Positions 2,420-62,509 of a DNA stretch of 64,000 nucleotides are shown here, in pieces. Below the pieces are notes generated by a model. That model saw only the letters and a list, made by a program, of their open reading frames with translations. It was not told the DNA's origin and ran no database searches. The position numbers and the translations under genes are program-made. Origin of the DNA: Sisyra terminalis (lineage: Eukaryota > Arthropoda > Insecta > Neuroptera > Sisyridae); contig OY292277.1 in the NCBI GenBank assembly GCA_958496175.1, positions 43,721,050-43,785,049 of the forward strand, given 5' to 3'. Within the stretch, counting starts at the first letter, position 1. Each line of letters opens with the position of its first letter.

Positions 2420-3372
2420 GACTGGGCCAAAAAAATCGACTGTTTTTTAAAGTATATCGAAAATATTGTTCAAGGTGACAAAAAAAAAATCATCGAGAAG
2501 GTTTGAGCCCTTAATATTTAGTGGTCTATCATCTTTAATTTCGATTTTTTATTTGTGCTTTTATTTTTGCGTCATGCTGTCAAACTATCAAGGTAAAAAA
2601 AATCATCTGCACATATATTTATAGAAAATTGAATTCCCTACAAAAAACGTAACTATGCAAAGTTTTGCCAGACAATCAAACTTTAAATATTGATATAATT
2701 TTTAGATTTATCTTCTATGTTTTGGAATTTTGTAACTAAGGAACAAATAAATTTATAGAAATGAATAATATAGATTCTTGAAGGGAATTTAATACTCTAC
2801 AAAAAAGGTTTCTTGGCGTTCTTACATAAAATCACTGTTTCAAAAATTATTCACAATTAAAGTAGAAGGAAAAATGAAATTATTGTTTTTTTCATTGTTG
2901 AACCAATTTTTAAAAAGTGATTTTAAGTAAAAACGTTAAGAGACCTTTTTTGTAGAGCATTAAATTCCCTTCAAGAATCTTCAAGAATTGTTCATTGCTA
3001 TATATTTATTTGTTCGTTAGTTACAAAATTCCAAAATAAAGAAGATAAATCTAAAAATTATGTCAATGTGTAAAGCTTGACTGTTCAGAAACGGCGTGTC
3101 TGGCGAAAATTTTCAAGGAGACATTTTTTGTAGGGAATTTAATTTTCTATAAATATATGTGCAGATGAATTTTTTTACCTTGATAGTTTGACAGCATTGA
3201 GGCAAAAAATGAAAGCACTAATAAAAAATCGAAATTAAAGATGATAGACCTCTTAATATTAATATTATGGGCTCAAACCTTCTCGATATTTATTTTTTTG
3301 TATTCTTGAACAATATTTTCGATATACTTTTCAAAAAAAAAAAAAAAAATAGTCGATTTTTTTTGCCCAGTC
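2420..3372. mobile_element. Foldback MITE family 'GACTGGGCC', copy A
   Basis: It starts GACTGGGCCAAAAAA and ends with the complement; the arms pair over most of the 953 bp. Nearly the same sequence occurs at 59066-60030 and, truncated, at 47334-48162. The frame at 3267-3515 belongs to the arm and is not a gene. Confidence 0.88.
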
Positions 3373-3379
3373 TAATCTA

Positions 3380-25136: not shown

Positions 25137-25205
25137 ATCTACCACGGAATCGAACCTAACTTCTAATGAAGAGGAACACTAAATTGTTACTACTATACTA
25201 AACCC
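25137..25205 (-). mobile_element. tRNA-like SINE head, family 2
   Basis: On the minus strand, A box TAGTATAGTAG (25190-25200) and B box GGTTCGATTCC (25146-25156) are 33 bases apart, followed by TTTATTTATTTTTT. The acceptor stem does not pair. Confidence 0.5.
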
Positions 25206-32200: not shown

Positions 32201-32645
32201 CTCCCTTAGTAGAACTATCTAAATCAAAACTATATGGTTGCTGTTAAAAACTTTAACCATTTTGAAAATTGTACCCCATTTTTTTTTTGTTTCATCTAGT
32301 ATGTTTATATAACAATATTTATTGTACGTCGTATCCACTGGAATAGTCTTGTTTGGAATTTATTTTGTAATTAGATATTATCCAGTGGTGATATAATCTC
32401 CAAAATTTGCGTCACAGGTTTGAGATATTTAGTAGAGCATAACATTTTCCTGATTGTATTACGAAATCTCAGCTTTTTATCTTCATTGCATTATCGTGGC
32501 AAATGATGCATTTGCATGGAAAACTGGTAATATGTCGTTGCATTAAGGACTCATTTTTCCCCAAAAGATGTCGATCTGAGAAGCCGGGGTGGCCTATTCG
32601 TAACCTTCAACATAATAATGATTAACCTTTTCTCTTGTTTAATTT
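29300..32645. other. No gene seen
   Basis: AT-rich, low-repeat DNA. Frames at 30472-30929 (plus) and 31065-31443 (minus, two overlapping) have no family signature. Confidence 0.4.
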
Positions 32646-32649
32646 ATTG

Positions 32650-34580
32650 AGACCAATCGAAAGTATAAGCCTACCCGAACATGCTGTGCAAATTTTCCCG
32701 AAAACAAACAACGTTTAAGGGATGAAATCGACCATCAACGTGCAGAAGAAATGATGAAACAATTCAAAATTCAATCTAATGTAACATCGATAAATAAGGG
32801 AAGATTTTCGAACAAAGAACAGTTACGGGTTCATAACAGTGTCTTAAACGTTAATATAATAATCTATTTCGAATTCAAAACAAAAAAATTTTAGTCAAAA
32901 AAATAAACGTGGATTGAAAAACTGTGGATTAAATTTTTCCGAAAAACAAACTACGTTTAAGCGATGAAATCGACCATCAAAATGGCAGAAGAAATCATAC
33001 AAAACCACCCAAACTTCAATCGCATGCTACATCGCTATATAAGGGATGATTTTCGAGCCAAAGGCAGCTTCAGGTTCGTAACAATGTATCAACGATAATA
33101 TAACAATTTTTTCGAATTCGACAAAAAAATATTTTTCTTCCAAAAAAATCGTTGGTTAACGTCGAATTTTCACGAAAATCGTCAAATTTCATTTTTTTTT
33201 TTACGATACAAATCGAAAGTAAAAGTCCATCTGTGCAAATTTTTCCGAAAACAAGCCACGTTTAAGGGATGAAATCGACCATCAAAGTGGCAGAAGATAT
33301 CACAGAAAACCATTCAAAGTTCAATCGCTTGTATTATCGTTATTTAAGGGATGATTTTCGAACCAAAGGCAGTTTCGGGTTCGTAACAATGTATCAAACG
33401 ATAATATAACAATCTACTTCGAATTCGAGACAAAAAAAATTTTCGCCAAAAACAATAATGGATTAACGATCGTTGATTTTTCACGAAATTCGAAAAATTT
33501 CATGAACTTTTGTGTGTGGACGTATATTATCGATTAGCATCGTGAAAAAACATTTAAAATTTGTCGATTTTCGTGAAAAATCAATGATGGTTAACACACG
33601 ATTTATTTGGAAGAAACATATGTTTTTTTCGAATTCGAAAAAATTGTCATATCGTTTGACACAATATTACGAACCCGAAACAGTATTTGGTTCCAAAATC
33701 ATCCCTTATATAACGATGTTACATGCGATTGAAGTTTGGAGTGTTTTCTTTGATTTCTTTTGCCACTTTCATGGTTGATTTCTTCCCTTAAACGTGGTTT
33801 GTTTTCGGAAAAATTTGCACAAAATGCACAAATGGACGTTTACTTTCGATTGGTATCCTTAACAATTTTTTTTTTGAAATTGGACGATTTTCGGGAACAA
33901 TCAACGATGTTTTTTTTGACTAAAAAATGTTGTGTTTCGAATTCGAAAAAGATTGTTATATTATGGTTTAGTACATTGTTACGAATCCGAAACTGCCCTT
34001 GGTTCGACAATCATCCCCAACTTAGTAAGGTTACAACCTCTTAAAGTTCGGATGCTTTATCGATTTCTTCTGCCACTTTCGAGGTCGAGTTCATCCCTTA
34101 AACGTTGTTTATTTTCGAAAAAATTTGCACAGCATGCACAGATGGACGTATACTTTCGATTGGCATCCTTATTTATTTTTTTTTGAAATCTGACGGTTTT
34201 TGAGAAAAATTAACGATGGTTAATCCACGGTTTTTTTTTTGACGAAAAATGTTTTTGTTTCGAATTCGAAAAAGCTGGTTATATTATCGTTCTATACCTT
34301 GTTACGAACCCGAAACTGCCTTTGGTTCGAAAATCATCCCTTATATAACTATGTTACGTGCGATTGAAGTTTGGATGGTTTTCTATGATTTCTTCTGCCA
34401 CTTTGATGGTTGATTTCATCCCTTAAACGTGGTTTGTTTTCGGAAAAATTTGTACAAAAGGCACAGATGGAGGTATACTTTCGATTGGCATCCTTAAATT
34501 TTTTTTTAAATTTGATGATTTTAGTAAGAAATCAACGATGGTTAACCTACGGTTTTTTTTGACGAAAAATATTTTTGTCT
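32650..34580. repeat. Satellite array, about 0.3-kb monomers, inverted at about 33500
   Basis: About three monomers run forward (32650-33500) and three or more run in reverse (33500-34580), each about 270-320 bp. Diagnostic words are TTTAAGGGATGAAATCGACC, GGCAGAAGAAATCA, GATGATTTTCGAACC and GGTTCGTAACAATGTATC. Monomers differ from one another by substitutions and small indels. Peptide-like open frames across the monomers are by-products of the repeat. Confidence 0.85.
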
Positions 34581-34584
34581 CAAA

Positions 34585-35325
34585 ATCGAAATCTTTAATT
34601 GAAATCCTGCGTTTACTGATGTGTTTATTTATTTTTACTGTGGTTTTCTATGGGTTTTTATTTTTGTTTATTTTTTTTGCTTTAGTAACGCAACAAAGGA
34701 ACAGGAACCAGTCGACAACAATGGATCAATATTGGATCGGAAAAGAATTATTTGTGCCAAAGGTGTTGTGTGAATAATTAGTGATAGTTATAATGTAAAT
34801 CTCAAGTGAATAAATGAAAAATGGAAGAATAAAATTATTTTCACTATATACTATAGTGTTTTTATGACTTTAAATCTTATTTGTGTTCACTGCAGTATGA
34901 TTAACAAAAACCAAAACAGCAATTTGTAAATTAAAATAATATTTTGTGGAAATCTATATCAATCTTGTGCATTTGTCGTAATTGGAAAATTTTATTGAAA
35001 ATCAATAAACCTTTTTACTGTGGAAAAGTTGTTTTATTTACAAGTATTGTTTTTCAGGAAATTCTTCTTTCAGATAAATTATCAACAATAATGATATTAA
35101 ATAAGGTTTGTTTGAGATTACATCAAAGATCAATAATGCAAAAAAAAATTCTAACTAAAAGTGATATAGTTTTTCTCAAACAATCCATCTTTAATATTAT
35201 TATTTTGAGTCTAAAGTTTGGTAATTGTTGGCAATTTCGAACATCATTCTATTGTTTGTTTTTGGAGATTGTTGCACAGAAGTTTCACGATAAGTAAGCC
35301 TTTCAAAGAGTAAGTATTTCCGATA

Positions 35326-35365
<40 letters not shown>

Positions 35366-35700
35366 GTATTTCATTAATAACCCTAAGAAAAAAAAAGAAT
35401 ATACCTTTTAGTGTGCATTTCAACGTAATGTTACACTTAGGCAACCAACTTTGCATTAATGTATGTTAGTTGCGTTCAAAAATTATTATTATACATATTA
35501 GTTTTGCTAAACAATCAGATAATGAGATGAAAATGTCATTGATTTCATTTTTTTTATCATCGAAAAAAACGTGCAGGGACATAAAAATATTTTTCGATTA
35601 CTTTGGCGGATTTAACACGAAGCAGCCTATAGTGTGAATGATTTCGAAAAATACAAGTTAGTTTAATCAAAAGAATTTCCATTTTAAGTGCAAATCTCAT
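34585..35700. other. No gene seen; between satellite and palindrome
   Basis: Holds a 117-codon frame with a TTG start (34944-35297) rich in Ile, Leu and Lys as expected of AT-rich noncoding DNA, and a (TA)n run. Confidence 0.4.
35329..35363. repeat. (TA)n microsatellite
   Basis: An uninterrupted TA run of about 35 bases, 340 bp before the giant palindrome. Confidence 0.95.
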
Positions 35701-35748
35701 GAGAATTGTTTATATATGAGTTTTAACGTCATTTACTTATATCATATG

Positions 35749-35826
35749 ATAGCCGCATCGCTAAGGTCGCCGCCACTACCGGAGCTGAGGTCCCTGGTTC
35801 GAATCCCGAAGGGGTAAGTGTTTTTT
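35749..35826 (+). ncRNA. tRNA-like Pol III cassette 1 (left end of palindrome)
   Basis: A tRNA-like stretch with a perfect B box (GGTTCGAATCC) near 35805 and a degenerate A box (GCATCGCTAAGGTCG) about 35755-35770, followed by a T6 run at 35821-35826 that would end Pol III transcription. The acceptor stem does not pair, so it is not a functional tRNA gene. It is homologous to cassettes 2 and 3 and identical to cassette 4 in inverse orientation. Transcription has not been shown. Confidence 0.5.
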
Positions 35827-37671
35827 CTTAAATATAATAATTGATTTATATTCCTTACACCTTACCATATCACTAATTAACATTAATAATTGTTTCCAGA
35901 CATTGTATCATCGAAATATTCGATCGAACAGTTCCAACCTTTCGGGGTTGGAAATAATCGATCGATCGATCGATGATGCAATATATTTTTCATTTTATTT
36001 TTGCTCATTGGTTTTGTGACGTCACTCAATTTCCTATATATGATGTCCCACATACGTCGCTATCCAATGACATCACCCAATGATGTCATTATCGAAAAAA
36101 ATCGAAAAATGAGCGAATTTTCCATTTTTTGTGAAATAGGATATTGGGAATGGCTTAGTTACGTCACGGGAGGCATTAAAAACATATCAAAAGGTGCATT
36201 ATTTTCATTTTTTTTTCAAAAATTTTCCGGCCGAAATTTTGAAGAATCCCAAAAATAGGCCTAATTTATCGATTTTTTAAACTTTTTTCAACTTTAACGC
36301 CGTTTTTAGCGAAAACTATCGGTCGTAGGTTAACGATAGTAGGCTTATTCGATAGCGCTTGAATTACTCTATCGATGGTATTAATTTGGTCCCGGAAAAC
36401 CTTAAGGAAAAAAAGTTTTTTTTTCAACTCCTCAGAAATTTCATTTCGTCGACCAAATGCACGTGAAAAATATGATTTTTTTTTTGTCGAATTTTTTAAT
36501 GAAATTCTCACCATAGATGCATTACGTTACCATCAAAGCATATATATAAAAAAATCTCACTTTTTCGATATCGTTAATGGTTTTTTCGATTTTTAAATTT
36601 TACCTATTGTGCGAGCTAATGCTGTTTAAATACAAATTTGTTTTGTTAGAAAAAGGATCAAGGACCTTAAAATGTTGCAATTTTATTACACAACTTTTCC
36701 AAACGTCACATGGAGCTGCTTTGGTGAAAATATTTCCCGAAAATTCCAAGAAAATCTCAAGGCCAAATCTGTTTCACCAGATCGATTTTCATGGAATTTT
36801 CCGGAAAAATTTAAACCATAGGTTGTCCATGTTAAGATCGGAAAAGATGTTGAATCACATTGCATACTTTTAATGTCCTTGATCCTTTTTTACCATAAAA
36901 CATAAATGTATTCAAATGAAGTTACGTCACAACATTTTAATCTTTAATATCGAAAAAAACGATAAAGAGGATCGAAAAGTTAAGATTTTTTGGTATAGGG
37001 TTTTCGTTCGTAACATTCTGTAGCTATGGTGCGAATTTCATCGGAAAATGCGAATAAAATATATTCAAAAAAAATTTTATAAAATCGACGAGCATCGGGT
37101 CGAGGAAATGAAATTTCTGAGGAGTTGAAAAAAAAAGTTTTTCCCCTTAAGCTTTTCCGGGACCAAATTTACACCATCGATAGAGTAATTCAAGCGCTAT
37201 CGAATAAGCTAACTATCGATAACCTACGATCGTTAGTTTTCGCTCAAATTGACGTTAAAGTTGGAAAAAGTGCAAAAAGGAGTCATTTTTGGCCCATTTT
37301 TCAGATTTTTTTGGATTTTGGTCGAAAAATTTTCTCAAAAAAAATGAAAAATTCAAAAAAAGGATATGATTTTTAGGCCTCCCGTATCATCCTTATGCCA
37401 CACACCAAATCCTATTTTACTAAAATCGAAAATTCGATATCCTCCCCCTCATTTTTTCGGGAATGACGTCATTGAGTGACGTCACATATGCGGGATCAAA
37501 AAAAAATTATAACTCATCGATTGATCGATCCAATTCCAACCCCGAAAGGCTGGAACTTCTCGTTCGAATATTTCGTCCTTACAAACTCTGGAAACAAGGA
37601 TTAATGTTATTACATGATATTATATGCTGTAAGGAACAATTATTAATTATAATATTTGAAAAAAATCCTGG

Positions 37672-37748
37672 GTCCAGGTCCATCCGGGAATCGAACTCGT
37701 GATCTTCCGCTCGTGAGGTGCCGCTCATATCCACTTGGCCACGTGAGT
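37672..37748 (-). ncRNA. tRNA-like Pol III cassette 2 (inner end of left arm)
   Basis: On the minus strand it has a canonical A box (TGGCCAAGTGG) and a B box (GAGTTCGATTCC) separated by 32 bases, the spacing of a true tRNA gene. A short CCTGG/CCAGG hairpin and a run of Ts follow. The T stem pairs only partly and the acceptor stem not at all, so this is a promoter-bearing relic or SINE-like head, not a tRNA. Confidence 0.55.
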
Positions 37749-38221
37749 TATATGTATTGTTCGTTAAAACTTATATTTAAACAATTCTTAATCAATCGGG
37801 ACTTTAAAATTTTTTCGATCGAAATAATTGTAAGTTTCAAATAATAATCTATCAAAAAAGGCTTTATATTTAAATTGGTAAAGAATTTTTATTGGAAGCT
37901 TTAAGTTCACCGCATATTACCACAGATGGCAATGAAATCTTAAAATTCTTTTCAACTTAAATTGTTAATAGTATGGATCTTAATGCACAGGCGGCACAGA
38001 AAACTTAAGTTGGTTCAAAATATTTAAAGATTTCATTGCCATCTGTGGTAATATGCGGTGAACTTAAAGCTTCCAATAAAAATTCTTTACCAATTTAAAT
38101 ATAAAGCCTTTTTTGATAGATTATTATTTGAAACTTACAATTATTTCGATCGAAAAAATTTTAAAGTCCCGATTGATTAAGAATTGTTTAAATATAAGTT
38201 TTAACGAACAATACATATAAC

Positions 38222-38308
38222 TCACGTGGCCAAGTGGATATGAGCGGCACCTCACGAGCGGAAGATCACGAGTTCGATTCCCGGATGGACCTGGACCCAG
38301 GATTTTTT
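38222..38308 (+). ncRNA. tRNA-like Pol III cassette 3 (inner end of right arm)
   Basis: Mirror copy of cassette 2: A box TGGCCAAGTGG at 38227-38237, B box GAGTTCGATTCC at about 38270-38281, a CCTGG/CCAGG hairpin, then T7 at about 38302-38308. If transcribed it would give an RNA of roughly 85 nt. Cassettes 2 and 3 diverge from the palindrome centre. Confidence 0.55.
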
Positions 38309-40143
38309 TCAAATATTATAATTAATAATTGTTCCTTACAGCATATAATATCATGTAATAACATTAATCCTTGTTTCCAGAGTTTGTAAGGACGAAATAT
38401 TCGAACGAGAAGTTCCAGCCTTTCGGGGTTGGAATTGGATCGATCAATCGATGAGTTATAATTTTTTTTTGATCCCGCATATGTGACGTCACTCAATGAC
38501 GTCATTCCCGAAAAAATGAGGGGGAGGATATCGAATTTTCGATTTTAGTAAAATAGGATTTGGTGTGTGGCATAAGGATGATACGGGAGGCCTAAAAATC
38601 ATATCCTTTTTTTGAATTTTTCATTTTTTTTGAGAAAATTTTTCGACCAAAATCCAAAAAAATCTGAAAAATGGGCCAAAAATGACTCCTTTTTGCACTT
38701 TTTCCAACTTTAACGTCAATTTGAGCGAAAACTAACGATCGTAGGTTATCGATAGTTAGCTTATTCGATAGCGCTTGAATTACTCTATCGATGGTGTAAA
38801 TTTGGTCCCGGAAAAGCTTAAGGGGAAAAACTTTTTTTTTCAACTCCTCAGAAATTTCATTTCCTCGACCCGATGCTCGTCGATTTTATAAAATTTTTTT
38901 TGAATATATTTTATTCGCATTTTCCGATGAAATTCGCACCATAGCTACAGAATGTTACGAACGAAAACCCTATACCAAAAAATCTTAACTTTTCGATCCT
39001 CTTTATCGTTTTTTTCGATATTAAAGATTAAAATGTTGTGACGTAACTTCATTTGAATACATTTATGTTTTATGGTAAAAAAGGATCAAGGACATTAAAA
39101 GTATGCAATGTGATTCAACATCTTTTCCGATCTTAACATGGACAACCTATGGTTTAAATTTTTCCGGAAAATTCCATGAAAATCGATCTGGTGAAACAGA
39201 TTTGGCCTTGAGATTTTCTTGGAATTTTCGGGAAATATTTTCACCAAAGCAGCTCCATGTGACGTTTGGAAAAGTTGTGTAATAAAATTGCAACATTTTA
39301 AGGTCCTTGATCCTTTTTCTAACAAAACAAATTTGTATTTAAACAGCATTAGCTCGCACAATAGGTAAAATTTAAAAATCGAAAAAACCATTAACGATAT
39401 CGAAAAAGTGAGATTTTTTTATATATATGCTTTGATGGTAACGTAATGCATCTATGGTGAGAATTTCATTAAAAAATTCGACAAAAAAAAAATCATATTT
39501 TTCACGTGCATTTGGTCGACGAAATGAAATTTCTGAGGAGTTGAAAAAAAAACTTTTTTTCCTTAAGGTTTTCCGGGACCAAATTAATACCATCGATAGA
39601 GTAATTCAAGCGCTATCGAATAAGCCTACTATCGTTAACCTACGACCGATAGTTTTCGCTAAAAACGGCGTTAAAGTTGAAAAAAGTTTAAAAAATCGAT
39701 AAATTAGGCCTATTTTTGGGATTCTTCAAAATTTCGGCCGGAAAATTTTTGAAAAAAAAATGAAAATAATGCACCTTTTGATATGTTTTTAATGCCTCCC
39801 GTGACGTAACTAAGCCATTCCCAATATCCTATTTCACAAAAAATGGAAAATTCGCTCATTTTTCGATTTTTTTCGATAATGACATCATTGGGTGATGTCA
39901 TTGGATAGCGACGTATGTGTGACGTCATATATTTGAAATTGAGTGACGTCACAAAACCAATGAGCAAAAATAAAATGAAAAATATATTGCATCATCGATC
40001 GATCGATCGATTATTTCCAACCCCGAAAGGTTGGAACTGTTCGATCGAATATTTCGATGATACAATGTCTGGAAACAATTATTAATGTTAATTAGTGATA
40101 TGGTAAGCTGTAAGGAATAGAAATCAATTATTATATTTAAGAA

Positions 40144-40220
40144 AAAACACTTACCCCTTCGGGATTCGAACCAGGGACCTCAGCTCCGGTAGTGGCGGCG
40201 ACCTTAGCGATGCGGCTATC
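40144..40220 (-). ncRNA. tRNA-like Pol III cassette 4 (right end of palindrome)
   Basis: Inverse copy of cassette 1 with the same perfect B box and the same T-run beyond it. It points into the palindrome. Confidence 0.5.
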
Positions 40221-40266
40221 ATATGATATAAGTAAATGACGTTAAAACTCATATATAAACAATTCT

Positions 40267-40560
40267 TATAAGGTTTATGGAAAATTGAAATTTTTTTCGA
40301 TCGAAATAATTAGAATTTCCCAACCATAGGCGAACCATAGCTGCTCCATGTTAAAGTTGGAAAAGTTGAGTAATCAAATTGCAAGATTTTAAGGTCCTTG
40401 ATCCTTTTTTTGCGTAAAAACCAAATTGTATTTCAATAGAATTTCGTCATAAAATAAAGGCATTTAATGACGAAAAAAAACGATTATGGACATCGAAAAG
40501 TTAAGATTTTTTTCGATATTGGCTTTTTTCGTATTATTCGATAATTTATCGAAAAACGTT
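40267..40560. mobile_element. Third, partial and diverged copy of the foldback sub-element
   Basis: The homology of the palindrome continues past its right end. The stretch with TTTTTTCGATCGAAATAATT near 40290-40312 matches the one near 37812-37832. Bases 40320-40410 (GCTGCTCCATGTTAA ... AAGGTCCTTGATCC) match the central region near 36660-36720, with many substitutions. The family was therefore present more than once at this site. Confidence 0.6.
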
Positions 40561-41084
40561 GCACCTACATTACATACCGTATTAATTTTATTAAACCTAC
40601 CTATATTATTATCCCTTTTATTATACTTACCTTATTATTAATTTAACTCTTATATGTATTTTAACTGTAAAAAAAAATCCCTGGAAAATAAAATTCAAGA
40701 GGATGGGTGGAGTAAGTTGAATTGAAACATTGCATTCTATGAACATAAATTTATTGATGTTTAATATCAATTAAATATATACAATATTGCAATAACAGTT
40801 TTGTGCATATTTACAATTGCTTGTATAAACTATGTAAAAGAATCATTTGTTATAATCTTATAGAAACTATTAAGTTAATAAAAAGCTATTGAATTGTCTG
40901 ATATTTTGAGTATTTATCACTTGAACTACACTCTATCACTTCACTTCACTGATTTATTGAAACACAATTTACACAACTTATTATTGTAGTAAATCCATTC
41001 GTATTCTTCTCGGTAGATAGCCATTGTGGAATGATATCCTTGATGAATTTGATTGAAGATTATCGAACGATCCACATCCATTCT

Positions 41085-41295
41085 TCAAACGTCCATTCGA
41101 AAATGATGACAATCCAAATTCAATATTTCTCTAATGTCTTCGGTCAGCTTCCTCTGAAGTAAAAAATTCAATTAGAACAACATTCACAAGTTTCAATAAG
41201 TCTGACACTTACTAAACATTTATCGCCAAAAAGAATGGTACTTTCTCCAACCCCAACCAAACTGTCTTGGTACTTAATTTTCAGGTAAGTTGAAT
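41085..41295 (-). CDS. 3' end of an unrecognised small minus-strand gene (two exons)
   Basis: Exon 41295-41213 (acceptor TTTTTACAG|ATTC, donor GTTTA|GTAAGT) is open in one frame only, reading STYLKIKYQDSLVGVGEST then ILFGDKCL. It joins in phase 0 to 41153-41085 (acceptor TTTACTTCAG|AGG), which reads RKLTEDIREILNLDCHHF and RMDV before a TGA. Both exons are open only in the frames that splice together, and both splice sites are strong. The region after the stop has an AATAAA near 40960-40955. The upstream part is uncertain: the exon needs one base from a phase-1 junction. The gene would lie about 1 kb downstream of PIG-S on the same strand. I do not recognise the protein. Confidence 0.55.
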
Positions 41296-41508
41296 CTGTA
41301 AAAATACATAAAATTAAATTAATAAAACATATCAAACGTCCAATTTATATTAAGTGGTAAACAAGGGAACTTAGGCCGCAGCCCAATTTCCTAGTCGAAT
41401 AAATTGTTGCCTAACTTCAGTAATTAGTAAAAAAAACGGATAATTTCAAGGAATGCCTTTCCTGATCACGGTAACTTTTTTCAATGTCTTATAAAAAAAG
41501 ATCCATAC

Positions 41509-42194
41509 GTGAACTGTAATATGGATCCAGATTCTTGGAAAATCAAAACGGGAAATTAGAGGAGTGAAAAAGCACCCATTAAATTTGCACTAAAATTGGT
41601 CGAAATATTATAACAATCTACTTCGAATTCGAAACAAAAAAAAATTTCGTCAAAAAAACCTGTGGGTTAATTTTCACGAAAATTGTCAATTTCAAATACA
41701 ATTATTTACGATGGCAGTTGATAATATACATGTACATGCTGTGCAAATTGTTCCGAAAACATACCACGTTTAAGGGATGAAATCGACAATTAAAGGGGCC
41801 GAAGAAATCATCAATCCGTCCAAAATTCAATCGCTTGTATTATCGTTATATAAGAGATGATTTTCGAACCAACGACAGTTTTGGGTTCGTAATAATGTAA
41901 TAAACTCAAATATAACAATATTTTTCGAATTCGTAACAAAAATGTTTTTTGCCAAAAAAAAACCGTGAGATAAATAAAAAAAAAATCTAAATCTAAAATT
42001 TGACGACGTTTATACAAGAGAGAAAAATCTGGGGTAGATTTTTTTTATAAAAACGTAATACATTATTTATTTTAAATGCTGTAAATATAAAACCATTATT
42101 AACCATTATAAAAACAAATCATAAATGATATATTATATTTGATTCATCTACTTACAATTTTTGATACGCCGTTATCCTCCAAAAAAATGTTCAT
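41509..42194 (-). CDS. Possible 5' exons of the same small gene
   Basis: An ATG at 42194 opens MNIFLEDNGVSKI and runs into a strong donor, AAAATT|GTAAGT, at 42156. A 25-base candidate exon, 41533-41509 (acceptor TTTTCCAAG|AATC, weak donor TTCAC|GTATGG), would supply the phase shift needed by exon 41295-41213. Together with that pair it would make a 71-residue protein. A 1.4-monomer satellite fragment lies in the first intron. The donor at 42156 is good evidence for an exon; the 25-base exon rests on phase arithmetic only. Confidence 0.25.
41588..42005 (+). repeat. Satellite fragment, about 1.4 monomers
   Basis: Same family and orientation as the forward half of 32650-34580, with GTTTAAGGGATGAAATCGAC near 41768 and GGTTCGTAATAATGTA near 41884. 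It lies between the candidate exons of the small minus-strand gene. Confidence 0.8.
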
Positions 42195-43270: not shown

Positions 43271-46200
43271 CTGAAACAAAATAAATTGACTTGTATTTTT
43301 TTTTATATGGTAAAGAGATGTCAGAAAAATGTAAGAAAAAGGTCAGAAATCTTTTTATTATGGTAAGTGACCGACCGAATTTTGGTGTCTCTTTTTGCCA
43401 AGTTTCGGCTTAGTTTTAGTTTCGGCTTTCATCAAACCAAAACTATGACCGAAATCGCAACTAAACTACTGAGATGAAAATGTTGCGAAATGATATTTCT
43501 TACTTAAAATATTAGATTCCTTTTGAACATCTACCACTTTTTAAGTGTTCAATTTGACCGACCCATTCGTAAGAAACTTTTTTAATTCATTTTATATTAT
43601 TCGTATCTAATATTAAAAATGAATATTAGGTTAATTTCTTTCCAATCAACAATAATTTATCAATAATTTATTTGAAATAAGAAGTTTCCATATTAGGTGA
43701 AGTATTAGAGACTAATTGAATAATAAATATCTTTAGGATTTAAAAGTAAAAACTGACAAATTACGATTGAATTTTTTTCCCCGAAAACATAACTTTATAT
43801 GGAAGTTTCGTCCAAAACTGATACTGATGCCGAAATTCGGTTTCGACCGTAAAAACTAGTTCCTATCGGACACTATAATTTTTAAATGGAAGTAAGCTGT
43901 AAGTCTAAGAAATAATATCTGATTATTCAGAGATTGGTTAGGTTGAAAAATACTACAAAAAATTCATTGCAAAAGTAATAATATTCAAGTTAAGGAACCT
44001 TTAACTATCTTTAACGGTATTGGAAGGTTAATAATTTAAGCAGTTAAATTGAATTTTGAGAGATTATAAAAGTTTTCAATTTCTCCAAAAAGGGGAATTC
44101 ATATGTAATCGCTTGACAGTACTGTAAATTGGGTTGCATAACTTCAACATAGAGTAACCGTTCCTTTATTTCTTCATATCAAACATAAAGTTTAGCGATT
44201 AATTGCTCAATTTAAATAACATAGTTACGTAAGGGATGATTTTCGAACCAAAAACAGTTTCGGGTTCGTTACAATGTATCACACGATAATATAACAATCT
44301 ATTTAGAATTTCGAACAAAAACATTTTCGTCAGAAAAAACCGTGGGTTAACCATCGTTGCTTTTTCACGAAAACCGTCAAATTTCAAAATAAAATTTTAA
44401 GGATGCCAATCGAAAGTATACGTGCATCTGTGCCTTCTGTACAAATTTTTCCGAAAACAAACCACGTTTAAGGGATGAAATCGACCATCAAAATAGCAGA
44501 AGAAATCATAGTAAACCATCCAAATTTCAATCGCATGTAACATCGTTATATAAGGAATGATTTTCGAACCAAAGGCAGTTTAGGGTTCGTAACAATGTAT
44601 ACAACGATAATATAACAAGCTTTTTCAAATTGGAAACAAAAAAATTTTTCGTCAATAAAAACCGTGAGTTAACCATCGTTGATTTTTCACGAAAATCGTC
44701 AAATTTTAGATTTGGTTTTTGTTGATGCCAATCGAAAGTATAAGCCCATCTGTGCATGCTGTGCAAATTTTTCCGAAAACAAATCACGTTTAAGGGATGA
44801 AATCAACCATCAAAGTGGTAGAAGATCATAATCAATCCGTCCAAAGTTCAATCGCTTGTTACATCGTTATTTAGGGGATGATTTTCGAACCAAAGACTGT
44901 TTCAGGTTCGTAACAATGTATAGAACGATAATATAACAAGCTTTCTCGAAATCGAAACAAAATATTTTTCGTCAAAAAAAACCGTTGGTTAACCATCGTT
45001 AATTTTTCACGAAAATCATCAAATTTAAAAATTTTTATTTACGCTGCCAATTTTAATCAGAGACTAAATGAATAATAAATACCTATAGGATAAGTAAAAA
45101 CTGACAAATCACGATGAAATTTTTTTCTCGAAAACTAAACCTAATATGAAAGTTTCGGCCAAAGCTGATACTGATCCTGAAATTCGATTCCGTCCGTAAA
45201 AACAAAGTTTCTGTCGGACACTTTAGTTTTTAAATGAAGTAAGCTGTAGGCCTAAAATGTAATATCTGAATATTCAGAGATTGGGTAGGCTGAAAAACAC
45301 TACAGAAAATTCACCAGTGAAAAGTTAGTATTCCATCGAAGGATTTGCGAACTGGTGATGATCTTAATCGATAGGTCTTATTTATAAAAAAACTAAAGTA
45401 GACCTAACGAAAAAAATATCAGACCTTAACTGACCTAACGATTAAGATCATTACCAGTTCGCAAATCCTTCGATGGGGAGCTAACTTTGCATTGGTAGAA
45501 AATTCATTGTAAAAGCAATAATATTTAAGTTAAGGAACCTTTAATCGTCTTTAACGGTATTGGAAGGTTAATAATTTAAGAAATCAAATTGAATTTTCAT
45601 AGATTATAACAGTTTTCAATTTCTTCAAAAAGGGGAACTAATATGCAATCGCTTGACAGTACTGTAAATGTGGTTGCATAACTTCAACATAGAGTAACTG
45701 TTCCTTAATTTCTTCATACCAAATATAAAATTTAGCGATAGTCTAGCGATTAATCGCTCAATTTTGAAGGGTAATAATTTTCTTCTAAGCGATTATATTT
45801 TAGTGCTAATGGAATAGGTGTATTTAATCTGGTATATCTGTTTTTTTTTTTTCAATTTGTAAAGAAGACAATTTATAAATTTATGAAGTCAAAAGTTTTC
45901 TGTAACTATGAACCACCAATACACAAAATATTTTGTGAAAATTATCCGCAGTTCCACTTTTGATTTGGAGCATTGATTTTATGACATCTTTTCAAAGTAA
46001 AAGTCTTTTTTGATATGAATATTTGTTACTAATCATAGTTCTATTTTCCCCTAATTTTTTCTTACTTTTGATCATCCGGAAAGTAAAGCAAAGCCAATAG
46101 ACTAGGATCATAAAAAGCGGTTTCAGACGACAAAAAGGCAATTCTGGATTTTTCAAAAGCCTCCTCCAGTTGTCCTTCTTGTAAATGCAACGCTGCTACT

Positions 46201-49200
46201 TCGGCATTGGCCACAGCCGAATGAATCGAAGTCCCCACCTAAAATAAAAAAATATTTTTTTCTTGATTTTTTTATTTTATAAAAAAAATTGTAAATCTAA
46301 CCTCATCATTAATCACAATTGTGGTAATTTTCGTCAATAATTCAGCCAATGACTTTAAGGTCAGTCGTGCTGAGACTAATTGCTCCAATGCTCTCAATCG
46401 AAGCAATGCGTCCAATTCCCATTGTCGTGGCTTCAGAGACTTCAACGGCATTACATGAATTCCTGGTGTCGATTCCTAGAAAAATCAATAAGAACACGAA
46501 CCGGAAAAAAATAAATAAATAAACCATCAATGATTCTAAGCTTGTTTCCATACCAGTTCTTGAATTCCAACTAATTGTCGAAGTTGAGTTATAAACGTTG
46601 TCATTATTGTATTGGTATCAGGCGAAATAACTGCTTGGGTTTTATAATCGATCGCATCTTTACACAAATCAGCCTCGGGATTAATAATCGCTACCCCACC
46701 CCAACGTGGTGACAAAAACGCATTTGTACTGCTAGCTTTCATCCCTTAAAAATTCCATGTTTAGTTGTAGAAAGAAAACAAAAAAATAAATAAAAATTTA
46801 AAAAATACCTTTTGAATCATAGATATGCAGAGGTGCCTGTTTACAATGGGCCGCATAAAGAATTAGGTTCAAACATGAATTTTCAGAAATATGCGAAGAT
46901 AGTTTTTTTTCAAACATAGTTATCAAATAGGGAAGTTGATTGGTGAACAGGGCAAATCGTTTTTCGTTCCATTCGGGCAAACTTCGATCGATCATAGTTT
47001 CGATTTTATCTCCAATCGAAACGTAGTACAACCATTGTGATTTCAAATTGAAATTCATGATATGGGAAATTGATTCAGTGAATGGTTTTAAATATTCTGG
47101 AAAAAAAACATATTTTGATTAAAATGAATGTTTTGAGAATAAAAAATTAATTATAAATACAAATTTCACACAAAAGTGTAACTTTTAACGCAACCAGACT
47201 TTGTCATTCTGTATTATTTATTCAAAGTAAAAAATACATAAGAACCTCAGTTATTATTCTTTACTTCTATTATAGTTATCCACTGAAAATAAAATAGTCA
47301 AAAAACAAGAATGATACATTATCATACACATTCGACTGGGCCAAAAAAATCGACAATTTTTTTTTTTGAAAAGTATATCGAAAATATTGTTTAAGGTGAC
47401 AAAAAAAAATTATCGGGAAGGTTTGAGCCCTTAATATTAAGAGATCTATCATCTTTAACTTCGATTTTTTATTTGTGCTTTCATTTTTGCGTCAATGCTG
47501 TCAAACTATCAAGATAAAAAAATTCATCTGTACATATATTTATAGAAAATTAAATTCCCTACAAAACACGTCTCTTTGAAAATTTTTACCAGACACGCCG
47601 TTTCCGAATAATCAAGATTTAAACATTGATATAAATTTAAGATTTATCTTCTTTATTTTAGAATTTTGTAACTAACGAACAAATAAATTTATAGAAATGA
47701 ACAATATAGATTCTTGAAGGGAATTTAATGCTCTACAAAAAAGGTCTCTTAACGTTTTTACATAAAATCACTCTTTCAAAAGTTATTCCCAATTAAAGTT
47801 GAAGGAAAAATTAAATTATTGTTTTTTTCCTTGTTGAACCAATTTTGAAAGAGTGATTTTATGTAAAAACGTTAAGAGACCTTTTTTGTAGAGCATTAAA
47901 TTCACTTTAAGAATCTATATTGTTTATTTCAATATATTTATTTGTTCGTCAGTTACAAAATTCCAAAATAAAGAAGATAAATCTAAAAATTATATCAATG
48001 TTTAATGCTTGATTATTCGGAAACGGCGTATCTGGCAAAATTTTTCAAAGGAACATTTTTTGTAGGGAATTTAATTTTCTATAAATATATGTGCATATGA
48101 ACTTTTTTACCTAGATAGTTTGACAGCATTGACGCAAAAATGAAAGCACAAATTAAAAAATCTTTTCGTTTACCATTTATACAAAAACCATTGCGGAATC
48201 GGAATCGCTTCGAACGCTTATTGAAGCTTACTGTTTTAAAAAATAGAAATTACGATATCGACGTGGAAAACGAAGAACGTGGAAGACCAATTGTTAGAGT
48301 TGAGGAATGAAAATGATAGTCAAACGCAATAACTACTTAACAAAGAAGATTTGAATTAAGCTTTAGGGCTAAAAACAGCTAGAATATCAAAATAAGCAAT
48401 ACAAAGTGATCTTGCAGTTTGGTAATTCCCCTGGTCACACAGAAAAACGAGTGCAAGATATGGTGGAGGCAATTAGTCAGGAAATACTTTCCAGCCGCAT
48501 GCGGCTTACTCCCCAGACTTGGCTCCTTCTGATTAGTACTTATTTACGTCGATGGGACACGCACTTGCTGAATAGCACTTCACATCCTATAAGGATCTAC
48601 AACAATGACTCGATAATGGGTTTTGCTCAAAAGATGAACAATTTTCTTGGCATGGTATCCAAAAATTGTCAGAAAGATGAAAAAAATGTACAGTTAAAAG
48701 AAGAAATAATTTTGAATAAAATAAGCATTTTCATGAAGAAAAAAAGCTATTTTTTAGAACGAAAATCCGGTTTCATAATTACACATCTAGTATATATCCA
48801 TTATATAAAAGAGTTCTAGAGGAAATCAATTTGATACTAAATTTATTGACAAGTAAAGAAAAGTTCTGTGAAACCGTCGTTATACAATTGTAAAAGAATT
48901 GAAAACTTATCAACAATTGTAAATTTTATGAGCCGTTGTTCTATAACAGATTTAGAAAACGATTTTTTTTTAATTGTTATTTACCGTCGCTTTTATAACT
49001 ATGTGCTAAGATCCTTTAGCGACTCTAGGGTTAATTAAATCCGTTATCGAGAAATATTGAAAATTTCAACGATACGAGGATCGAACCCACTTTAGAAAAT
49101 GTTATAGAAATTTTATAACTTTACTGTTTAATATACTAATAGGCTTTCTTTAAAACTAATAATAAATTTGTTAATCGAAAAAGAAAGGTGGTGTCAGCAG

Positions 49201-52200
49201 TGAATCAGCAATCGAATACAGCAGTAAATCTACTGGGTTTTGTTAAGCTGATGGAAAAATAAAATTGCCACAATTAACACTATCACCAGATCCATTATGC
49301 TCCTTATTTTATGGGATAGGTAATGATTCTAAAAACTCCTTGGTCATTATTCAAAAATATAACAATTTTTTTCAAATGACGTCGTTTGGCGCATAAAACG
49401 AATATTATGTTTCAGGAAGTACTGAAGAAAATAGGAACATTCCCAGTATGCTTCCAGTTCGTGACGATTGAATTGGTCAAAAAAATAATACAATTTCGAG
49501 GGACACAAAAAGACAAAAACAAAAATATGTTTATAGATATGAGCAAGATCACGTCAAGTGGACCCCCTATTTTCCACTTGATCATAAAAATTAAGTTCAT
49601 GTATATTTTTCATAACTAGTTACTATGAAAAATTGATCCCCCAAACAATTTTTAAAAATTTTAATTTTAACAATAATTTTTTTAACAATGAAAATTTTAA
49701 GTACTTTTAATTAAAAAATAGATTTTAAGTCAACCGTTAAAGATAAATTAATGAAATTTTCAGGGTTTACTGTCAAATATAAATATTTTGAGAAAACATT
49801 AATAACTAAAAATTATTTGTTTATTATCATATTGTTAATTAACTTTTAAGTTAACAAATGAAAATTTCATTGATTTCTCGGTCAAAATTTGATTTTTTTT
49901 TAACAGTCACATGCGTTATTTATCTAAGTTTAAAATTCCGAAAGAAAATTTCACTGCTCGCGATTAGTTTAAACAATATGAATTTATTTATTACAGCGCG
50001 CCGGGCGCCAAGCGCTGTGATAATAAATTAATTAATAAAAAATCAATGAAATTTTCATTTGTTAACTTAAAAGTTAATTAACAATATGATAATAAACAAA
50101 TAATTTTTAGTTATTAATGTTTTCTCAAAATATTTATATTTGACAGTAAACCCTGAAAATTTCATTAATTTATCTTTAACGGTTGACTTAAAATCTATTT
50201 TTTAATTAAAAGTACCTAAAATTTTCATTGTTAAAAAAATTATTGTTAAAATTAAAATTTTTAAAAATCGTTTGGGGGATCAATTTTTCATAGTAACTAG
50301 CTATGAAAAATATACATGAACTTAATTTTTATGATCAAGTGGAAAATAGGGGGTCCACTTGACGTGATCTTGCTCATATCTAAGTTTGTCTTTAAACTCA
50401 TTAATAGGTGAGAATTTTAGGGTTTTTTGTATGCATATGAGTTTTACCAGCTTTATACATGTTTTATATGTTTTACATGTTTTATAAGTGTAAATCTCAA
50501 TAAGTACAATACAATGTATATTAATTTAATTGTTAATAATTATTGTTATTGTTAGAAATTTAATAATAAAAATATGAGAGTACGAGACAATGGCAGGTTT
50601 AAATAAGAAGATCAGGAATTTGGAACCAGTTTGAGGCATTTATTATTTGTTGTCAATTATAATCACATTAACACCTCTTTCTGACTCCATAAATGATACC
50701 TTTGAACCGATATTTTTCCCACATTTTGCCCTTCAAGCTTTCACTATGCTATTCTATACCACCCGTTGAGAACAGCTAAGAGTCGTTTGCAATTTCACAC
50801 CAACTTGGAATTCAGCCAGTTTCGGTCACAATATTGATCATTATGAATCAAAGGTCGATAATTCGAACGTACATTTCTGCCTACCTGCATTCTTTCGTAA
50901 GATTCAAGAACAGGTTTATTGATTTTGATAATATTTTGTTTTCAGGTACTTCTTAGTGTTTTACCAAAAAAAAAAAACAGTATAAAGGTCACAAACAAGT
51001 CTAATCTAAATAGATGTATCAATATTTAATTCTGGTTTTACTTTTGGTTCCAATTTAAAGACAGCCTTACTGATTTGATAGAAACTTCGTAATAAAGATC
51101 AACTAATTTTTATTCATAAGAAAAGGTTGCCTATTTAGGTTTAAGTATTAATAATAAAAATAGCTATTAATTGCATATAAATTGGACCCTTTAATTAAAT
51201 ATCTATGATCTTTTTTAAGATATCAAAAAATCAGCATATTTTAAATCAGGAGTGGCCAACCCAAATGATATTGCGGACCACTTCGGAAATGCATCATAAC
51301 TCCGTGGACCACTTTCGAAGTTATGTTTCAAATTTTCCATTCTAAATTTAGATATATTGTAAACATTTTTAATATATTGACTTTCACCACTTTGGTGGTT
51401 ATAAAATGTATACATTTTATAAAACTCTGATGCATATCGCGGGTCGAAAAAATTGTCAAGGGTGCTTTTTGCGGTCCGCCGATTGGCCACCTCTGACAAC
51501 CTCTAATTGAAATAAATAATGAATAATCTATCGTTTATCTACGAATATAAAATTATTATATTGGTTTGGGTGAATTTCAAAAACTCAAAAAATTTTGCAT
51601 CGATTTAGCTCAAATTTTGACACGATATACAATCCGCTTCAAAGATTCTTTTTCTTAGGTCAGTAACATACCTGCGACGGCAAGAAAACGACTTCTTCAA
51701 CGGTTTATACATTAGCCACTAACTGTCAATACTTCATGGCTATGATCGTGTAATGATTTTTAGAGGTAGAGCAAAATTTTCTCAAACCATAATTGATAGA
51801 TGTATATCTTGAAGGTAAGTTATTATTGGTACATCGAGGGTAGCTGCGGGTTGATAAGGGATGTAATTCTAATCATTCATAAGCTTTTTTTCCTAATTCA
51901 ATTTATTTATTTACAACCATTGGCTGGCAGAACAACGTCTGCCTAATTCAGCTAGTTCCATGATAAATTTAAATTATAATATCAATATAAAAATTTTAAT
52001 TTGCGTTTCAAAATCAATCAAAATACTAAAATGAGTTTTTACACAGTAAAAAAAATTATACCAAATGATCATTTTGAACATCATATAATTTAAAGAAACT
52101 AAAAACGAATAAATTATTCCAATATGTAAAAGTACCAGTTGACTACAGTATAGACGTATAGGCAAACCGTGTTACATACGAGTGGAATTGTTGCCTACCG

Positions 52201-55200: not shown

Positions 55201-58200
55201 CCAAATGGCAAACCACGGTTTTTCATTATTTTGTTCTTCTATTGTACATCAAATTCTTGAAGAAGTTATTATTATGCAACAATAGATCGTCAAATTGTAC
55301 ATCAACTTCTTCAAGAAGTTGATGATATTGTATGAACTTGATGATATTATATATCAACTTATTGAAGAAGTTGATGTACAATTTGACGATCTATTGCTGC
55401 ATAATAATAGTTAAGTAAAGACTGCGTTTTAGAAAGATTCTTCAGCATTTTAGAACACTTAAGACATATCTTTTCAACAGTGATCACAATTCAGTAAAGC
55501 TGCCATTGATTTTGACGAATATTTTTAAACATATCAATGACCTGAACCTTAATCTTCAAGTCAAGGGAAAGCTTGTATGGGAACTCATGTCGGAAGTAAA
55601 AAGCTTTTTAGTGAAAACTCGATTTTGTTATTAATGATCTTGGTAATGAATGCTTTAACTTAAACTTCCCCAATTAAAATAAAATAATCAGTAGTGACGA
55701 CGAGATTGATATCGGTCAATACAAGAAGTTCATTATGGATCTTAAATCGGAGTTTTACTTCGCTGATTTTAAGAAAATTTGAAGATACAGAAATCCTCAG
55801 CAGCATTTACTTTCTGCATCTTGATGGTGAATGGAGTAATGATGTTGCAATTGTTTTCAGGAGTGATAATGCTACTCTGCAGATGGAAATGATTGATTTC
55901 CAAGAAAACATAGTTTTAAAACCCAAACTTTCGGAAGTTTCCAGTGAAGAGTTCTGGATAAAATTTGTGGGGGATGATAAATATCCGGAACTACAAATAT
56001 TTGCTTTGAAGCTTCTAACTTTTTTTGGGTCAATATATATTTGAGAAGTAGCATTTTCGAATATGAACTTTATTATAAAATAAGTTTCGATCTCGACTTA
56101 CTGATAAACATCTCCAGGATTTAATGTCAATAGCTTGCACCAATTTTACTCTAAACTTCAGACATATAATCCTCAACAAAAAATATCATTTTTTTCATTG
56201 ATATATAAAAAAATACCTTTGTTATTTCCGTAATTACATTTGTTTAATAATTATTTTTTTCTATTAAGTGTTGTACGGACCACAATAGTCACTTCATTTC
56301 TTAAAACGGACACTAAGCAAAACTAATTGGTGACCCCTGCTCTAGATATCAAAAAAAAAAGGAAATTGTTTACAACCGCGGTTCCCACTCTTTCTTTGTG
56401 CAAAGATAATAAAACACAAGAGGTCCAGGGGCGATCCTGCTGAAAGTTCCTTTTAGTAACATCAATATCTGACTGTTGTATTTTCGACTTGGTTTTTAAT
56501 TTGATTCGCGATTAAATCGAGCTATAATTAAATTAACATTTTAAATAATATTGGAATTGATATTGGGGGGCTTCGCCCCTAGACCTCTTATGTATAGTTC
56601 TTTTAGCACAAAAATAGGTGGAACCGAGGTTGAAAACAATAATTTTTTTAAGCAATTAACAATCGAAGGATCAATTGACGGATATATTTTGTCTTATTGA
56701 TATTTTGTTTAGGGATATTTTGTATAGGAATACTTTCTGTGTGGATAATTTTTTTTGCGGGGATGTTTTGTCGGGAGATCAAGACGCCGATACGGATGAT
56801 GAGTTTTGTTTAAAAAATGAACTTTTCTGATATGGTTTACCCATAAACAATCAGAAAAATAGCAAAAATGAATAATTAATAGCGGGAATTATTTTGAATA
56901 AATAAGGGTTTTCATATAGAAATAATGATCAAGACTCCTGATACTGAAGATGGCGGGTTTTGTTTAAAAAATGATCAATTATTCTGATATGGTATCCATA
57001 AACTATCAGAAACATAGCAAAAATGTATAGGTACTTAATAGAGGGAATTATTTTGGATAAATAAGGGTTTCCATATAGAAATAATGAAGAATTATTTTTC
57101 ACAAAAAAAAAACAGTTTTTATATTAACACACCTAAAGCTTTCCGAACAATCCAATATACGAAAAATTTCAACCAAAATTCATATAAAAAATGGTAAGCA
57201 AAATATCACAATCATAATAAAAATTCAATTAAAGGGTTGAAAACGTTAATAATAATTCACTTGTAAATTGTAGTAGAACGCCAGTAAGCACCTAGTGACC
57301 TTTTCAATCGCAAAAGAAATTTGGTCAGAAAAGTTGCACTTTTGCTAGGGGAGCTTTTTTAACAAAGAATTTAACTAACAGATGGCGTGACTGTGCAATA
57401 GATTTATTACTTCCCAAATAAGTTGACAAAAAGTTCAATTCCATATTAAGTAGGAAATAACATTTATACTATCTATTTTATAATTGCTTTTTAATTTTAC
57501 TTATCAACTAATTATAAAATTAATTGGAAAAATAAAAAAAAATTAAAACAAAGAACGGAAAATCAGTTCTACTTTTTCCACAAAATAACACTAAGTACAA
57601 CATACTCCGATGCCATCCGATTCAATCGTATTGATTTCATTAATAAATGCACTTAATTATAAGGTCATTTTTTCAACGATAATTAATTCCACGTGCCACT
57701 TTCAACTTGCATTACAACATTCTATTCAATTTATTCCCGTGTAATACACTTATTGCTAGAATCAGTACTACATAAATAATAATGGTCACAATAAATAATT
57801 GTTAATAAGATATATTATACTTTGGGAAAGTCTTTAAAAAGACTTTAAGTCTTAAAATAAAAGTCTTTTTTTTTCTCTCGATTTTCTCGTTAAGTAGTTT
57901 TCAATTTTCAATCATATGACAAAGTTTTCATTGACGAAAAAAAATTTGGCAAACAAAACGTGTTTTCACTCAGCCTTGAATAGTTCAAAAAAAGATTTTT
58001 ACGTATCTTTCGTCTACTATTATATAAGAAATTTGTTTTTTTTTTAAACTATTTTAAATAATTTAATTATAAGAATTTTCTTGTTTCAGAAGCTGATGGT
58101 GATAAATAGGAACTATGTATTTTTTATTGAGGGGGGCGATATTTTTAAATGAGGGGGACGAAATTTGGACTTACTTGTTGCGGATGTAAAGTACAGGACT

Positions 58201-62504: not shown

Positions 62505-62509
62505 CTGGA

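What the first reader, a model, noticed from the sequence alone, without database searches (positions are those of the whole stretch)
35702..40266. Palindrome of palindromes with tRNA-like Pol III cassettes at every end
Seen: two arms of about 2.24 kb are near-identical inverted copies around a centre of about 86 bp. Each arm is itself an older, clearly diverged inverted repeat. Each of the four sub-element ends carries an inward-pointing tRNA-like sequence with a B box, an A box (canonical in the inner pair) and a T6-T7 terminator. I know of foldback elements and of tRNA-derived SINEs, but of no named family that is a foldback with Pol III cassettes at both ends. Inference: the cassettes could transcribe the ends of a non-autonomous element, or supply ends recognised by a replication or integration machinery.
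Basis: partly seen in the sequence, partly recalled or inferred. Interest (0 to 1): 0.9.

Follow-up and report, generated by a model that had tools for sequence, protein, structure and literature searches.

The report
Satellite-flanked palindromes with tRNA-like promoter boxes
The palindrome is real and is the core of a repeated chromosome unit in a spongillafly-like insect: a DNA mirror carrying four tRNA-like promoter boxes, often flanked by mirrored satellite arrays and found at dozens of places, probably a chromatin landmark or an unusual mobile element.

Summary
In detail: 2,260-bp inverted arms (12 mismatches, 65-bp centre), each an old inverted repeat, with four inward B boxes. The window's own genome (376.6 Mb; cox1 97% identical to Sisyra aurorae, Neuroptera) holds at least 53 loci of the family, 20 of them inverted pairs on contig C4 at 42.8-51.4 Mb. 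In 15 of 23 palindromes read, the arms run outward into 340-bp satellite arrays mirrored on both sides; one unit spans 29 kb. Arms differ by under 1% in 16 of 21 loci and are sisters in the tree in 18 of 21, which points to gene conversion within palindromes. All 23 keep four B boxes under a relaxed pattern; of the 22 other than the window, 15 do under the strict one. The C4 loci are spaced more evenly than chance (mean 451 kb, minimum 237 kb), but the catalogue is incomplete and C5 does not clearly agree. No target duplication or ORF was found in the few units examined. Best reading: a dispersed satellite macro-dyad with a TFIIIC-type core acting as chromatin boundary or anchor; a mobile foldback is a serious rival. 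Function is inferred.

The parts
35692..37951 (+). left palindrome arm (sub-element S 35702-37790 plus 161 bp towards the centre)
38017..40276 (-). right palindrome arm, inverted copy, 12 mismatches
37952..38016 (.). 65-bp centre between the arms
35750..35826 (+). outer tRNA-like cassette, left: A-box-like 35750-35766, B box 35796-35806, T6 35821-35826
37659..37741 (-). inner tRNA-like cassette, left arm: A box 37728-37741, B box 37687-37697, T7 37659-37665
38227..38309 (+). inner tRNA-like cassette, right arm: B box 38271-38281
40142..40218 (-). outer tRNA-like cassette, right arm: B box 40162-40172
36350..36377 (+). 28-bp core motif CGATAGCGCTTGAATTACTCTATCGATG, four exact copies in the palindrome (also 37175-37202 -, 38766-38793 +, 39591-39618 -)
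   Evidence: a 32-bp form of it is found with 0-2 mismatches four times each in L010, L024, L027, L028, L031, L032
40277..41512 (+). outer arm extension of the unit, present on the right side only in the window
   Evidence: match 38084-41512 to L010, 88.5%
41529..41603 (-). stub of the 340-bp satellite that forms mirrored arrays in other units
33553..34591 (.). second satellite (period about 323 bp) left of the palindrome; relatives at 32641-33503 and, right of it, 41605-41973 and 44217-45052; part of the copies are inverted across the palindrome, part direct

Best explanation
The window holds one copy of a non-coding chromosomal unit of a Sisyra-like insect. Its usual plan is: 340-bp satellite array - outer arm about 1.1 kb - sub-element S (2.1 kb, two inward tRNA-like cassettes) - short centre - S inverted - outer arm inverted - satellite array inverted. 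SHOWN by sequence: inverted pairs of S on C4, C5, C6 and C3 and a single full arm seen on C2; the full plan with both arrays in 15 of 23 palindromes read (C4, C5, C6); four B boxes in all 23 under a relaxed pattern; arms alike within most loci and different between loci; neighbouring C4 loci more alike than distant ones; the 20 C4-right loci evenly spaced. INFERRED: arms are kept alike by gene conversion within each palindrome; the boxes recruit TFIIIC (and perhaps Pol III); TFIIIC bounds or anchors the satellite chromatin, as tRNA genes do at fission-yeast centromeres, so that each unit acts as a boundary or tether a few hundred kilobases from the next.
For: Copies and layout. Mirrored 340-bp arrays: both sides in 15 of 23 (23 = window, L009-L028, L031, L032). 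Satellite leads to core: a note written after predicted a core just left of a satellite array at C4:10.0456 Mb, and 1.6 kb fetched there holds S (84-86%) with core motif and inner B box; its orientation was not as the plan requires (see against). Concerted arms: under 1% divergence in 16 of 21 loci, below the nearest other locus in 17 of 21, sisters in the tree in 18 of 21; differences bunched in 200-bp bins in several loci (judged by eye). B boxes: relaxed pattern (RGTTCGNWTCC or RGTTCGANTCC) 2+2 in 22 of 22 held two-arm loci, strict RGTTCGANTCC in 15 of 22 and in the window. Cassette bins vary by 0.8-2.7% (minor alleles per 30 bp; the bin with the inner T run 4.6%) and the block 37562-37651 by 0.2-0.8%, against 3.8% over S. 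Spacing on C4-right: 20 loci, CV 0.33, minimum gap 237 kb, 0 of 10,000 uniform draws as even. Mantel r 0.35, 0 of 5,000 permutations (19 loci). Precedent for a Pol III-dependent barrier: PMC2040200 (listing and start of abstract only).
Against: No transcription, ChIP or Hi-C data, so no function is shown. At C4:10.04 Mb S lies with its INNER end towards a right-hand array, the reverse of the plan, so that locus is rearranged or incomplete and the prediction was met only for presence. Arrays are stubs in L012, L025 and the window (right side only), one-sided in L011, absent from the fetched stretches of L013, L014, L015, L022. Arms are no closer to each other than to another locus in L012, L013, L014, L019, and differences are spread rather than bunched in L013, L021, L022. 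Spacing on C5-left (15 loci) is ordinary by CV (P 0.26; minimum gap 207 kb, P 0.012) and unremarkable for 7 C5-right loci. The catalogue is incomplete: 40 of 452-1,009 candidates scored per arm or cassette search, 10 of 1,369 for the satellite. Bins beside the outer cassette vary up to 6.5%. Satellite bits at C4:44.90 and 50.91 Mb have no core known beside them. TFIIIC binding rests on motif match alone.
Confidence: 0.43

Rival explanations
1. A large non-autonomous foldback-type mobile element that carries satellite arrays and tRNA-like boxes and has spread locally on each chromosome arm; palindrome and arms are made afresh at each insertion.
For: At least 53 dispersed loci; neighbours alike, as in local hopping; isolated copies of one regional type elsewhere (C6:35.68 is C4-like, C2:9.64 is C5-left-like, C3:8.58 is C5-right-like); incomplete or rearranged copies; satellites carried by mobile elements are known in oyster Helentrons, which lack target duplications (PMC7492417, abstract and passages).
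Against: No target duplication or common outer end in the three cases looked at (L024 unit by eye; L015 and window); no ORF in four units; the 20 C4-right copies known are never closer than 237 kb; half-converted loci point to conversion in place.
Confidence: 0.37
2. Centromere-type unit: many small centromere-like sites along the chromosomes (holocentric or polycentric), or pericentromeric satellite.
For: Inverted satellites round a core with tRNA-like boxes look like fission-yeast centromeres (layout recalled); multi-kb satellite macro-dyads are described for Tribolium putative (peri)centromeres (PMC13081366, passages).
Against: Sisyra nigra chromosomes have a localized centromere (PMC12734326, passages); C5 has loci at 5.5-15.4 and 37.4-50.3 Mb, and C4 at 10.0 and 42.8-51.4 Mb; the window carries a PIG-S exon 22 kb away. 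Centromere proteins were not checked: the CENP-C search did not complete.
Confidence: 0.08
3. Inert leftovers: old inverted duplications of tRNA-derived SINE pairs with satellite growth, kept alike by conversion but without function.
For: S looks like two tail-to-tail tRNA-derived halves; conversion needs no function; satellites grow by themselves; 7 of 22 loci miss at least one strict B box.
Against: Four relaxed B boxes kept in 23 of 23 palindromes although the C4 and C5 types of S differ by about 12%; cassette bins and the core motif are among the less variable parts.
Confidence: 0.1
4. Assembly or long-read palindrome artefact.
For: Long palindromes are a known artefact class (recalled); no reads could be checked.
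Against: Arms differ, loci differ, 20 inverted pairs on one contig, no N in the 46 loci held.
Confidence: 0.02

Closest known systems
Satellite macro-dyad symmetries of Tribolium (PMC13081366, passages incl. abstract)
   Same: Multi-kb mirrored satellite arrays meeting at a conserved inversion site; lengths up to tens of kb.
   Different: There in multi-megabase putative (peri)centromeric regions, with no tRNA mentioned in the main text (0 occurrences); here separate units in chromosome arms, with a 7-kb core and four tRNA-like boxes. The paper says that such symmetries were documented only in Tribolium.
Fission-yeast centromere and its tRNA barrier (PMC2040200, listing and start of abstract; layout recalled)
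   Same: A core within inverted repeats, with Pol III genes inside and repeats outside.
   Different: One per chromosome and functional there; here dozens of copies in an insect whose genus is reported to have localized centromeres.
Foldback (FB/Galileo) transposons (recalled)
   Same: Long inverted arms with tandem repeats.
   Different: No target duplication or defined end found in three cases; tRNA-like cassettes; larger; evenly spaced on C4-right.
tRNA-derived SINEs (recalled)
   Same: A and B boxes in a tRNA-like head.
   Different: Cassettes sit in inverted pairs and a T-run follows directly; a SINE tail was not sought.
Satellite-bearing non-autonomous Helentrons of oyster (PMC7492417, passages)
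   Same: Dispersed satellite-like arrays carried in a defined element; no target duplication.
   Different: There the repeats are central; here they are outermost and mirrored. Helentron end motifs were not sought here.

Membership tests
Foldback / TIR transposon | long inverted arms | tested here: met
Foldback / TIR transposon | defined outer ends with target-site duplication | tested here: not met
   three cases only: L024 unit by eye; L015 (longest shared word 7 bp) and the window (9 bp, not at the arm ends)
Foldback / TIR transposon | transposase or partner element | tested here: inconclusive
   no ORF beyond the shuffle of L010 in 4 units; no autonomous partner was sought
tRNA-derived SINE | A and B boxes | tested here: met
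   motif level only
tRNA-derived SINE | 3' tail and target duplications of single copies | not tested
   -
Non-autonomous Helentron with satellite repeats | subterminal inverted repeats and 3' palindrome | not tested
   -
Satellite macro-dyad (Tribolium type) | mirrored multi-kb satellite arrays | tested here: met
   L024 unit 30.3 and 34.7 monomers; both sides in 15 of 23 loci, array lengths elsewhere not measured
Satellite macro-dyad (Tribolium type) | multi-megabase (peri)centromeric region | tested here: not met
   separate units hundreds of kb apart; centromere positions of this genome unknown
Holocentromere unit | holocentric chromosomes | tested here: not met
   by literature on S. nigra only, PMC12734326 passages; genus inferred from cox1
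TFIIIC boundary (S. pombe type) | TFIIIC occupancy and heterochromatin on one side | not testable with these tools
   -

The most novel reading that the evidence does not exclude
An animal genome with DNA-encoded, evenly spaced chromosome-arm landmarks: satellite macro-dyads whose inversion point is a self-repairing palindrome with four TFIIIC boxes, serving as boundaries or tethers every few hundred kilobases.
Probability: 0.28. Interest if true: 0.92.

Novelty: new variant of a known kind. Interest (0 to 1): 0.75.

Why it matters
Regular spacing along animal chromosomes is not usually tied to one long DNA sequence (general knowledge). A unit of known sequence, present at dozens of places with tRNA-like boxes and mirrored satellites, can be tested directly by occupancy and contact mapping. 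Even if it is a mobile element, a 10-30 kb foldback that carries its own satellites and Pol III boxes and whose arms are kept alike would be unusual. It would also take satellite macro-dyads outside Tribolium, where PMC13081366 says they were so far documented (passage).

Tried and rejected
Reading it as a tRNA gene pair: ARAGORN (bacterial mode) found none in the window and in 22 further loci, Rfam none in the window. RNA-level selection on the hairpin: G-U-type changes are about equal on both strands (39 against 43). Viral origin: the 28-bp core has no exact match in viral contigs (exact matches only, and records near this genome may be left out there). Holocentromere: set aside after the genus was found; units of Luzula holocentromeres are called non-uniformly spaced (PMC11538461, passages). 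Dosage compensation: C4-C6 are probably autosomes by size, while the S. nigra X is 31 Mb; inference only. Coding content: longest frames 87-107 aa in four units, against a mean of 99 and maximum of 155 in 50 shuffles of L010. Literature searches for an equivalent; nothing matching was seen in the listings, some of which were cut to part of the papers found, and most subscription journals are not held.

Not achieved: a full catalogue. The genome-wide motif pattern search did not complete (22 requests). Whether C1 and the presumed X have units is unknown. The search with the C4-left arm and the CENP-C search did not complete.
Full report
WHAT THE WINDOW SHOWS. The two arms are 35692-37951 and 38017-40276, 2,260 bp, 12 mismatches, no gaps, 65-bp centre. 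Each arm contains S (35702-37790), itself an inverted repeat at 69% over 2,061 bp. Four B boxes matching RGTTCGANTCC point inward, against a mean of 0.10 matches in shuffles of the whole window; a fifth match lies at 25146. T6-T7 runs are as described. The A box is canonical in the inner pair; in the C5 copy L028 the outer cassette reads TAGCCGAGTCGCTAAGG, closer to a canonical A box (consensus recalled) than the window's. ARAGORN (bacterial mode) and Rfam call no tRNA.

The right arm continues to 41512 (match to L010, 88.5%) and then to a stub of a 340-bp satellite at 41529-41603; the left arm stops matching L010 at about 35611. The flanks at the supposed ends are still related to each other. 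In other copies the arms run outward into satellite arrays in mirror orientation. The unit mapped to both ends, C4:50,556,797-50,586,040, has 30.3 monomers, a 7.15-kb core and 34.7 inverted monomers, and aligns with its own reverse complement over 27.8 kb at 95%. Of 23 palindromes read (window, L009-L028, L031, L032), 15 have the satellite on both sides, L012, L025 and the window (right only) have stubs, L011 has it on one side, and L013, L014, L015 and L022 have none in the stretch fetched. L012, L014, L022 and L027 carry relatives of a second satellite of about 323 bp that also flanks the window's core.

THE GENOME. It has 376.6 Mb in 11 contigs; C11 carries the mitochondrial cox1. This cox1 is 97% identical to Sisyra aurorae, next 94% to a nevrorthid (best 120 of 7,999 listed), so the genome is taken as Sisyra or near kin. 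The published S. nigra assembly has six autosomes of 46-64 Mb, an X of 31 Mb and 30-31.5% GC (PMC11162525, part 1 of 3 of the text), similar to but not the same lengths as here. S. nigra chromosomes have localized centromeres (PMC12734326, passages).

COPIES. Five searches with arms of different regional types give 52 loci: 20 on C4 at 42.79-51.36 Mb, all inverted pairs; 15 on C5 at 5.5-15.4 Mb; 11 on C5 at 37.4-50.3 Mb; 4 on C6 at 35.7-39.4 Mb; an inverted pair on C3 at 8.58 Mb; one full arm with fragments on C2 at 9.64 Mb. On C5 and C6 some loci are known by one arm only. Only 40 of 880-1,009 candidates were scored each time, so the list is a lower bound biased to each query's own type; a search with the 235-bp inner cassette region scored 40 of 452 and added none. 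A search with the satellite (10 of 1,369 candidates scored) found an array at C4:10.0456-10.0500 Mb in the orientation of a right-hand array. I noted that this predicts a core just left of it. The 1.6 kb then fetched there is S at 84-86% with the core motif and an inner B box: locus 53, near the other end of C4. Its orientation does not fit, however: the inner end of S faces the array, where the plan wants the outer end of an inverted S. That locus is therefore rearranged or incomplete, and only the presence of the core was correctly predicted.

CONSERVATION AND CONVERSION. In 21 loci (42 arms; window, L009-L028) the arms of a locus differ by less than 1% in 16, and by less than the distance to the nearest other locus in 17; the exceptions are L012, L013, L014 and L019. 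The nearest other locus is 0.7-5.8% away, 11.6% for the C5 copy L028. In the tree the arms are sisters in 18 of 21 (not L012, L013, L014). Among 19 C4 loci the mean difference is 5.6%. Arm-arm differences are bunched in L012, L014, L017, L020, L025 and the window, as expected of conversion tracts, and spread out in L013, L021 and L022 (200-bp bins, judged by eye, no test). Neighbouring loci are more alike than distant ones (Mantel r 0.35, 0 of 5,000). Cassette bins (0.8-2.7%; 4.6% at the inner T run) and the block 37562-37651 (0.2-0.8%) vary less than S as a whole (3.8%), but a bin beside the outer cassette reaches 6.5%. Under a relaxed B-box pattern each of 22 held two-arm loci has two on each strand (L014 one more); under the strict pattern 15 of 22 do, and where the alignment was looked at the others read GGTTCGCATCC in the outer cassette (L012, L023, L027, L028). 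The single arm L043 lacks an inner match. The core motif is exact in all four places in the window and has 0-2 mismatches in the six units of C4, C5 and C6 checked.

SPACING. The 20 loci of C4-right have mean gap 451 kb, CV 0.33 and minimum 237 kb; 0 of 10,000 uniform draws were as even or had so large a minimum. For C5-left (15 loci) the CV is ordinary (P 0.26) and the minimum gap of 207 kb is large (P 0.012); for the seven C5-right loci known at that time nothing stands out. Undetected members can only shorten gaps, so the even spacing is provisional.

ENDS. In the L024 unit the two arrays end at different phases of the monomer and the flanks share nothing by eye. At L015, which lacks arrays, the longest word shared by the two flanks is 7 bp, and at the window's ends 9 bp, not placed at the arm ends. 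No frame exceeds shuffled expectation in four units. These speak against a classic TIR element without excluding a mobile origin.

MECHANISM. Shown: a recurrent mirrored plan with incomplete and rearranged members, concerted arms in most loci, kept B boxes, regional subfamilies. Inferred: gene conversion between arms; TFIIIC recruitment; a boundary or tether role for the satellite chromatin. I put the boundary/anchor reading at 0.43 and a mobile foldback at 0.37; a mobile unit later kept in place would satisfy both.

KNOWN OR NEW. Macro-dyad satellite arrays are known in Tribolium putative (peri)centromeres, and PMC13081366 states that they were documented exclusively there (passage). Pol III-dependent barriers are known at fission-yeast centromeres (PMC2040200, listing). 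The combination found here was not met in the listings.

Noticed in passing
window 62191-62580 (-): Exon-like match to PIG-S (GPI transamidase; E 4.3e-10), showing a gene 22 kb from the palindrome.
   Followed up: partly
window 55688-56044 (+): ORF with a weak, below-cut-off match to the hAT dimerisation region (E 0.081).
   Followed up: no
window 49534-49876 and 50040-50382: A second, short, 99% identical inverted repeat of 343 bp with 163 bp between the arms.
   Followed up: no
window 2415-3376, 47330-48162, 59061-60034: Dispersed repeat of 0.8-1.0 kb, 84-91% alike, matching in both orientations and so partly palindromic.
   Followed up: no
window 25146-25156 (-): A fifth exact B box outside the palindrome.
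   Followed up: no
G000 C1:64743835-64745172 and 27 further matches outside C11: Many nuclear cox1 fragments (29 matches in all, 26 over the cut-off); the C1 copy scores the same as the one in C11, so it is a very recent insertion or a join error.
   Followed up: no
L037-L042 (six ends of contigs C3, C4, C5): By eye no TTAGG-type telomere array in the last 400 bp; tandem repeats of about 30 bp at three ends (L038, L040, L041), and at one end of C3 a 17-bp exact match to the core motif (E 0.004).
   Followed up: partly
G000 C4:44899737-44900701 and C4:50909389-50910182: Short 340-bp satellite arrays with no core of the family known beside them.
   Followed up: no
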